NCBI GenBank assembly: GCA_023511615.1
Contig: JAIMBL010000014.1
Coordinates: 1 to 44,212 of the forward strand
Origin: Leptolyngbyaceae cyanobacterium HOT.MB2.61
GTDB lineage: Bacteria > Cyanobacteriota > Cyanobacteriia > Leptolyngbyales > Leptolyngbyaceae
DNA: 44,212 bases
Direction of reading: 5' to 3'
How positions within the stretch are numbered: position 1 is the stretch's first letter; the number at the start of each line of letters is the position of its first letter. This document shows positions 3,137 through 42,519 of the stretch, in pieces. The notes beneath the pieces were generated by a model. The model was not told the origin of the DNA. It did not search any database and saw only the letters and a program-made list of their open reading frames with translations. A program made the position numbers and the translations under genes.

Positions 3137-3251
3137 ATAAGCTCTGAAGAATTCAATAGGAACCAGAAGCCAAACATCAGGGAGGCTGAGGCGACAGGCA
3201 CACAGGCGACAGAAAAGAATGAAAAGAATGACGCCCGTTGTCAGCTATAGC

Positions 3252-40969: not shown

Positions 40970-41677
40970 ATGAACCAGATGCCATCCAGAAAACCCGTTG
41001 TTGTTGCTCCGTCTATTCTATCAGCCGATTTTAGTCGCCTGGGAGATGAAGTTCGGGCGGTTGATGCCGCTGGGGCAGATTGGATTCACGTTGATGTCAT
41101 GGATGGTCGATTTGTCCCTAACATCACCATTGGTCCCCTGATTGTAGAAGCGCTGCGCCCGGTTACTCAAAAACCTCTGGATGTTCACCTGATGATTGTA
41201 GAACCAGAGAAGTACGTTGCCGATTTTGCCAAAGCGGGGGCCGACCACATCCTGGTTCATGCTGAATCCAGTTCCACCATTCATATTCACCGGGTCCTGG
41301 GGCAAATCAAGGAACTGGGTAAGAAAGCGGGGGCTGTTCTCAACCCCGGTAGTCCGCTGGATCTGATCGAGTACGTCCTGGAACTGTGTGACATCGTACT
41401 GATTATGAGCGTCAACCCTGGCTTTGGAGGACAGAGTTTTATTGAATCCGCTGTCCCCAAAATTCGCCAGCTGCGCCAGATGTGTGACGAACGAGGACTG
41501 GATCCCTGGATTGAGGTCGATGGTGGCCTGAAAGCAAACAACACCTGGAAGGTTCTGGAAGCAGGGGCAAATGCGATCGTGGCCGGGTCGGCGGTGTTCA
41601 AAGCAAAGGACTATGCAGCAGAAATTGAAGGAATCCGCAATAGCAAACGTCCGGCTCCTGAACTGGCTAAGGTCTAA
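40970..41677 (+). CDS. rpe: Ribulose-phosphate 3-epimerase
   Basis: A 235-aa TIM-barrel enzyme that interconverts ribulose-5-P and xylulose-5-P in the Calvin cycle and pentose phosphate pathway. Motifs: [14 protein letters not shown] (12-25, with the conserved Ser and Asp), [16 protein letters not shown] (metal-binding Asp D42), DVHLMIVEP (H73), [13 protein letters not shown] and IEVDGG. The length is usual. GGAG lies 13 bases before the ATG. An MITE has inserted 33 bp after its stop. Confidence 0.95.
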
Positions 41678-41710
41678 CAACTGAAAGAGACTGAGCGAGC
41701 TGTTAGTGAG

Positions 41711-41791
41711 GGGCGTTGCTGAAAGCAGGATGATTTGAAACGAGGTTTCAAGCATCCAACCCATTTCTCATCGCCAGGATCAGCAATGCCC
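41711..41791. mobile_element. 81-bp MITE with 12-bp inverted ends and 10-bp target duplication
   Basis: The ends GGGCGTTGCTGA (41711-41722) and TCAGCAATGCCC (41780-41791) are inverted repeats with one mismatch. The element is flanked by a perfect direct repeat TGTTAGTGAG (41701-41710 and 41792-41801). Inside is the hairpin GGATGATTTGAAAC...GTTTCAAGCATCC. The size, ends and target duplication together mark a recent transposition. The long 10-bp duplication suggests a transposase of an IS4-like group rather than IS630. Confidence 0.85.
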
Positions 41792-41919
41792 TGTTAGTGA
41801 GGAAGGTAACAGGCAACAGGGGGTGAGGTGGAGGGTTGGATGGGGTGAGGAAAGTTTTGAGTTTTCACTTCACTCCTGGCCCCTCACCTTCCACTCAACT
41901 AACAACTAAATCTGCCTTC

Positions 41920-42519
41920 TTATGGCAACGTTTTGGGAGTGGGTGTGGCCTCTAGACTGCCACTGCCGGGAGTTTGTCCACTGGTAGGCGGCAGTTGGTA
42001 GGGTTGCGCTGGATTGAAGGTTGGAAGGGGAGTGGGGGTACCAAAGGGATTATATGGGGTTGTGGTTGGGCTGATAGTGAGGGGAAAGTTAGGACCAGGA
42101 GTGGGAGTGGGGGAGGTTGTGGGTAGAGTTGCCAGGGCAACGCGATCGCCCCCCACCTGACGCATCAGATCTAAAACCTGCACCACATCGTTATAAAACG
42201 CGGTTTGTGAGGCATACAGCACCAGCAGGCCATCCGGGTTCCTTTCCCGATAGGATTGCAACGCCTGATAAAGCTGGCTGCGATCAACGAACTGGCGATC
42301 AATAAACGTTTGCCCAGTGGCATTGATGGTCACAACCAGCATGTCGCGCATCTGCGTTACCCCTGTACTCGCCTTGGGCAGATCAATATTGATTGCCTGC
42401 TGGCGGGTTAACTGCAAGGCCGCCAGGATAAAGAACGTCAGGATGCAGAAGATCACATCGATGAGCGGAATGATCTGAATCTGCACATCATCAGTTGGGG
42501 AATCAATGTTAACTTTCAT
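41920..42519 (-). CDS. exbD: ExbD/TolR-type biopolymer transport protein
   Basis: A 199-aa inner-membrane protein with one transmembrane helix (about 16-37) that carries the proton-pathway Asp (D21 in IIPLIDVIFCILTFF), followed by a periplasmic domain (about 60-130: LVVTINATGQTFIDRQ, LLVLYASQTAFYNDVVQVLDLM). The last 65 residues are Pro/Thr-rich low complexity, longer than in E. coli ExbD and possibly spanning the periplasm. With ExbB it uses the proton gradient to energise TonB or Tol-type envelope processes. It lies 135 bp downstream of exbB on the same strand. Confidence 0.9.
   Translation of the reverse strand: MKVNIDSPTDDVQIQIIPLIDVIFCILTFFILAALQLTRQQAINIDLPKASTGVTQMRDMLVVTINATGQTFIDRQFVDRSQLYQALQSYRERNPDGLLVLYASQTAFYNDVVQVLDLMRQVGGDRVALATLPTTSPTPTPGPNFPLTISPTTTPYNPFGTPTPLPTFNPAQPYQLPPTSGQTPGSGSLEATPTPKTLP

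What the first reader, a model, noticed from the sequence alone, without database searches (positions are those of the whole stretch)
41701..41801. Recent 81-bp MITE with perfect 10-bp target duplication next to rpe
All hallmarks are visible: 12-bp inverted ends (GGGCGTTGCTGA/TCAGCAATGCCC), an internal hairpin and a perfect TGTTAGTGAG duplication on both sides. The intact duplication means insertion was recent, so an active transposase that recognises these ends should exist in the genome. A 10-bp duplication is unusual for the IS630-type MITEs common in cyanobacteria.
Basis: seen in the sequence. Interest (0 to 1): 0.72.

Follow-up and report, generated by a model that had tools for sequence, protein, structure and literature searches.

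The report
IS1-type MITE copy downstream of rpe
A 79-bp non-coding transposon copy, one of about a hundred in this cyanobacterial genome, sits beside the gene rpe inside a perfect 12-bp target duplication; its ends and duplication lengths indicate that it was moved by an IS1-family transposase, which makes it a real but fairly ordinary mobile element.

Summary
At 41711-41791 a short inverted-repeat element sits inside a perfect direct repeat. Judged against its family, the element is GGC...GCC (41712-41790, 79 bp) and the duplication is 12 bp (CTGTTAGTGAGG), not 10 bp. It belongs to a MITE family with at least 40 copies, by end counts about 100, in this draft genome, and dozens more in related Leptolyngbyaceae-type cyanobacteria. 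Of 115 copies examined, 39 have exact target duplications of 7 bp or more (0.35 expected by chance); the usual length is 8 bp, a few are 9-14 bp.

Its right end matches the MITE end at up to 23 of 25 bases (best of 3,172 control sites: 17).

By sequence the copy is not young: nearest relative 91% identical (rank 91 of 110). No intact cognate transposase was found in this assembly, only relics on contigs C348 and C6. A long duplication is within the range known for IS1. The MITE is absent beside rpe in 29 relatives, but no clean empty site could be shown. New member of a known kind.

The parts
41712..41790 (+).
41700..41711 (+). left copy of the target duplication CTGTTAGTGAGG (12 bp)
41791..41802 (+). 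right copy of the target duplication CTGTTAGTGAGG (12 bp)
41712..41734 (+). left terminal inverted repeat with subterminal part (GGCGTTGCTGAAAGCAGGATGAT); resembles the right end of the IS1-type elements after a 1-base gap
41767..41790 (-). right terminal inverted repeat with subterminal part (reverse complement GGCATTGCTGATCCTGGCGATGAG)
41728..41757 (+). internal hairpin GGATG-at-TTGAAAC-gag-GTTTCAA-g-CATCC

Best explanation
A non-autonomous MITE of about 80 bp, one of roughly a hundred in this cyanobacterial genome, that was inserted downstream of rpe in trans by an IS1-family (InsA/InsB' DDE) transposase. The transposase recognises the roughly 25-bp ends GGCGTTGCTGAA..GC.GGATGAA, joins them to a staggered cut in the target, and repair of the stagger gives the duplication, usually 8 bp and here 12 bp. 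Shown: copy number, termini, duplications, and an IS1-type element with matching ends in close relatives plus a relic in the genome itself. Inferred: that this transposase moved the MITE. The copy lies between two convergent genes and probably has little effect; it is not notably young, and no intact cognate transposase was found in this draft assembly.
For: At least 40 copies and 216 end-type sites in the genome, also in relatives. Exact duplications of at least 7 bp, adjacent to GGC...GCC, in 39 of 115 copies against 0.35 expected from shuffled flanks; 29 of the 39 are 8 bp. IS1-type elements of about 755 bp in the same taxonomic family have right ends such as GGCGTTGCTGAATGGCGGGATGAATT, matching the MITE consensus end at up to 23 of 25 bases, against a maximum of 17 at 3,172 GG sites and at most 13 for other IS1 groups. 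These IS make 8-9 bp duplications too. The transposase is IS1: NCBIfam NF033558 E = 3e-77, Pfam PF03400, with an A6-7C slippery run and, in L180, the second ORF in the -1 frame. Relic IS with these ends in the genome itself: C348, 755 bp. E. coli IS1 makes 9- and 8-bp duplications with aberrant 7, 11 and 23 bp (PMC10359306).
Against: No intact cognate transposase in this draft genome, and none in the complete same-genus genome with at least 21 copies. The genomes richest in the MITE are not those with intact IS. The middle of the MITE (about 30 bp hairpin) was not traced to an IS. The window copy itself matches the IS ends less well than the consensus does (at most 17 of 25 ungapped), partly owing to a 1-base deletion.
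Confidence: 0.9

Rival explanations
1. A young insertion by a transposase that is still active in this strain, missed because IS copies break draft assemblies.
For: Perfect 12-bp duplication. The assembly is a draft of 383 contigs, and several IS1-type fragments lie at contig ends.
Against: Nearest copy only 91% identical, rank 91 of 110. Only decayed cognate IS copies found. The complete genome of the same genus has many MITEs and no cognate transposase.
Confidence: 0.15
2. The MITE is moved by another transposase family (for example ISL3 or IS5 type) and the likeness of its ends to IS1 is coincidence.
For: No intact cognate IS1 in the genome. A Microcystis MITE with 8-bp duplications is attributed to ISL3 (PMC11448079).
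Against: End match 23 of 25 against a null maximum of 17. IS630-type elements duplicate TA only (established knowledge), which is not what is seen. Screening the isolated ends among the first 59 loci gave no other IS with these ends.
Confidence: 0.05
3. A selected repeat (for example a transcript-end or RNA hairpin) kept for its structure rather than a mobile element.
For: Some helix pairs show two-sided changes: 24 cells in the outer stem against a mean of 5 in shuffles, 15 in the inner stem against 4.
Against: Those changes are concentrated in a few subfamilies, so they may be few events. Copies sit in target duplications. No T-run terminator in the element. Absent beside rpe in 29 relatives.
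Confidence: 0.05

Closest known systems
IS1 family (E. coli IS1)
   Same: The cognate elements have IS1 transposase, ORFs in -1 register at an A6C-type run, and 8-9 bp duplications with occasional others (PMC10359306).
   Different: The MITE has no ORF and is 79-81 bp; its duplications are mostly 8 bp, while E. coli IS1 prefers 9 bp.
ISMae3 (IS1-like IS of Microcystis aeruginosa PCC 7806)
   Same: An IS1-like element that moves in a cyanobacterium (PMC11448079).
   Different: A full IS; its ends were not compared here; no MITE of it was found described in that paper.
187-nt MITE of Microcystis aeruginosa PCC 7806
   Same: Cyanobacterial MITE with 8-bp duplications and a stem-loop, mostly intergenic, assigned to an IS family by its ends (PMC11448079).
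   Different: Ends GGCTCTTCG, attributed to an ISL3-family transposase.
Nezha MITE of cyanobacteria
   Same: A published cyanobacterial MITE family (cited in PMC10969869).
   Different: The original paper is not held, so its ends could not be compared.

Membership tests
MITE (non-autonomous DNA transposon) | short, no transposase ORF | tested here: met
   79 bp, no transposase reading frame
MITE (non-autonomous DNA transposon) | terminal inverted repeats | tested here: met
   11 of 12 outer bases complementary
MITE (non-autonomous DNA transposon) | target duplication at many independent sites | tested here: met
   39 of 115 copies exact, 7 bp or longer; control 0.35
MITE (non-autonomous DNA transposon) | many dispersed copies | tested here: met
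   at least 40 matches and 216 ends in the genome
IS1 family (as source of the transposase) | autonomous partner with IS1 transposase and matching ends | tested here: met
   about 755-bp elements in same-family genomes, ends up to 23 of 25; NF033558 E = 3e-77
IS1 family (as source of the transposase) | -1 frameshift joining InsA and InsB' at an A6C-type run in the partner | tested here: met
   A6-7C run at about position 366 in 11 of 12 elements; in L180 the InsB part is in the -1 frame; frameshifting itself not tested
IS1 family (as source of the transposase) | 8-9 bp duplications | tested here: met
   mode 8 bp for both MITE and partner IS; this copy is 12 bp, in the long tail
IS1 family (as source of the transposase) | intact partner in the same genome | tested here: not met
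   only relics on C348 and C6; the assembly is a draft. Not a defining feature of a MITE, but of an active system
IS1 family (as source of the transposase) | transposase moves the MITE in trans | not testable with these tools
   needs an experiment
IS630 / Tc1-mariner type MITE | TA target duplication | tested here: not met
   8-14 bp duplications

The most novel reading that the evidence does not exclude
An IS1-derived MITE family that has largely outlived its own IS in this genus: MITE-rich genomes lack an intact cognate IS while related genomes with intact IS have few or no MITEs, and the central hairpin is kept by paired changes, which would suggest that the hairpin has a role of its own in mobility or as RNA.
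Probability: 0.2. Interest if true: 0.45.

Novelty: new member of a known kind. Interest (0 to 1): 0.28.

Why it matters
It assigns an abundant cyanobacterial repeat to a transposase family. In the held library I found no description of an IS1-derived MITE in cyanobacteria, though this is a limited library and ISfinder could not be searched. It also shows that a perfect target duplication alone does not prove a recent insertion or a living transposase. Otherwise it is an ordinary kind of mobile element.

Tried and rejected
Rfam search of the region gave only sub-threshold microRNA-like matches to a neighbouring G-rich stretch. Looking for long pairs of ends around the first 59 loci gave no intact IS in this genome. 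The abundant IS1 group with GGTAATG/GGTAGTG ends, more than 30 near-identical copies in the same-genus genome, was considered as partner and rejected: at most 13 of 25 bases match. A clean empty site could not be shown: downstream of rpe the same-genus genome has no MITE, but the spacer does not align. The two-sided changes in the hairpin were not taken as proof of selection, because they fall in a few subfamilies. An automatic search for the rpe stop in relatives went wrong for many loci (wrong strand or frame); only its MITE-absence result is used.

Full report
Observation. The window holds GGGCGTTGCTGA...TCAGCAATGCCC at 41711-41791 with TGTTAGTGAG on both sides. The repeat finder gives the direct repeat as 12 bp, CTGTTAGTGAGG, at 41700-41711 and 41791-41802. 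Read against the family, whose copies begin GGC and end GCC, the element is 41712-41790 (79 bp) and the duplication is 12 bp. The 81 bp fold much better than shuffles (z = -3.5). The element lies between rpe (40970-41677, +) and a convergent ExbD-like gene (41920-42519, -; named from its sequence, not from a family search).

Family. A 26-base end pattern has 216 matches against 1 for the reversed control, which suggests about 100 copies. The consensus is GGCGTTGCTGAAAAGCAGGATGAATTGAAACGAAGTTTCAAGCATCCAGCACCTTTTTCATCCCCAGATTCAGCAACGCC. Matches occur in 17 of 42 genomes of the order, most in G000, G001 (same genus, complete), G010 and G013. Exact matches to a degenerate internal pattern were found in Leptolyngbyaceae cyanobacterium RU_5_1 and Tildeniella nuda, so the host is probably a Leptolyngbyaceae-type cyanobacterium (inference).

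Target duplications. With ends fixed at GG..TTGCTGA, 39 of 115 copies from several genomes have an exact duplication of 7 bp or more, against 0.35 expected when flanks are re-paired at random. Lengths: 7 bp 2, 8 bp 29, 9 bp 3, 10 bp 1, 12 bp 1 (this copy), 13 bp 2, 14 bp 1. So this copy is at the long end of a family whose norm is 8 bp.

The partner. Searching for IS1 transposases (PF03400) in the genome gave 16 matches. One, on C348, is a decayed 755-bp element with ends GGCGTTGCTGAATAGGAATATGA and GGCGTTGCATAATGAGAATATGA. In relatives of the same taxonomic family the same group is intact or nearly so: 755-781 bp, left end GGCGTTGCATAAT..., right end GGCGTTGCTGAAT..GCGGGATGAAT, with 8-bp duplications such as AAATTCCA, ATGAAATG, GAAAATAT, GAAAATCT, GATTTTTT and AATTAGTC. 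The right ends match the MITE consensus end at up to 23 of 25 bases (L164). Among 3,172 GG sites of the window the best is 17, and other IS1 groups give 5-13. The G032 transposase matches NCBIfam NF033558 'IS1 family transposase' at E = 3e-77 and Pfam DDE_Tnp_IS1. Most elements of the group have two overlapping ORFs and an A6-7C run near position 366; in L180 the second ORF is in the -1 frame, the IS1 arrangement. The family assignment is therefore well supported; that this transposase moved the MITE is inferred.

Duplication length. In an E. coli trap, IS1 made 9-bp duplications in 78% and 8-bp in 22% of its events, with aberrant 7, 11 and 23 bp (PMC10359306). A minority of longer duplications is therefore not surprising for an IS1-type enzyme.

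Age and activity. In an alignment of 110 distinct copies the window copy is 91% identical to its nearest relative (L002), rank 91 of 110, and 86% to the consensus; it falls in a small subfamily with L002, L003 and L239 (support 0.89), with a terminal branch of about 0.055. At that rate 24 bases stay unchanged about a quarter of the time (own arithmetic), so the perfect duplication does not prove youth. No intact transposase of the cognate group was found in G000, and none in the complete genome G001; fragments with the IS left end occur in G010 and G013. The prediction of an active transposase in the genome is not supported, although a draft assembly cannot exclude one.

Orthologous sites. No MITE was found within the held flanks of rpe in 29 relatives. 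In G001 the rpe spacer has no MITE, but it does not align well enough to show a clean empty site.

Hairpin. The central hairpin shows more two-sided changes than shuffles (outer stem 24 cells against a mean of 5, inner stem 15 against 4), chiefly GGATG/CATCC to GTATG/CATAC and TTGAAAC/GTTTCAA to TCGAAAC/GTTTCGA. Since these define a few subfamilies they may be few events; the matching motif in the right end changes with them. I leave this as a lead.

Literature. A 2024 review of prokaryotic MITEs cites cyanobacterial MITEs including Nezha (PMC10969869); a Microcystis MITE is attributed to ISL3, and IS1-like ISMae3 differs in position between Microcystis strains (PMC11448079). In Anabaena sp. 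90, MITEs of 77-541 bp could not be linked to any IS there (PMC3542288). I found no IS1-derived MITE described for cyanobacteria in the held library; this is a limited library.

Noticed in passing
41818-41897: G-rich/C-rich inverted repeat between the MITE and the next gene; folds at -39 kcal/mol as RNA but only z = -1.6 against shuffles; possibly a transcript-end hairpin between convergent genes.
   Followed up: partly
L107, L118, L129 (G001): The same-genus complete genome carries more than 30 nearly identical IS1-family copies of a different end group (GGTAATGTTCTAGG/GGTCGTGTTCTAGA, 8-bp duplications), probably recently active.
   Followed up: partly
L257, L260, L265, L273 and others in G000: A further MITE subfamily of about 81 bp (GGTGTTGCTGAATAGCAGGATGAATTGGAACGAAGTTTCAATTCATCC...) with a longer central palindrome.
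   Followed up: no
L066 (G000 C6, element 1162-1889 of the locus): 728-bp IS1-type element with GGCGTTGCACA ends and a slippery AAAAAAG run between its two ORFs; no target duplication seen.
   Followed up: partly
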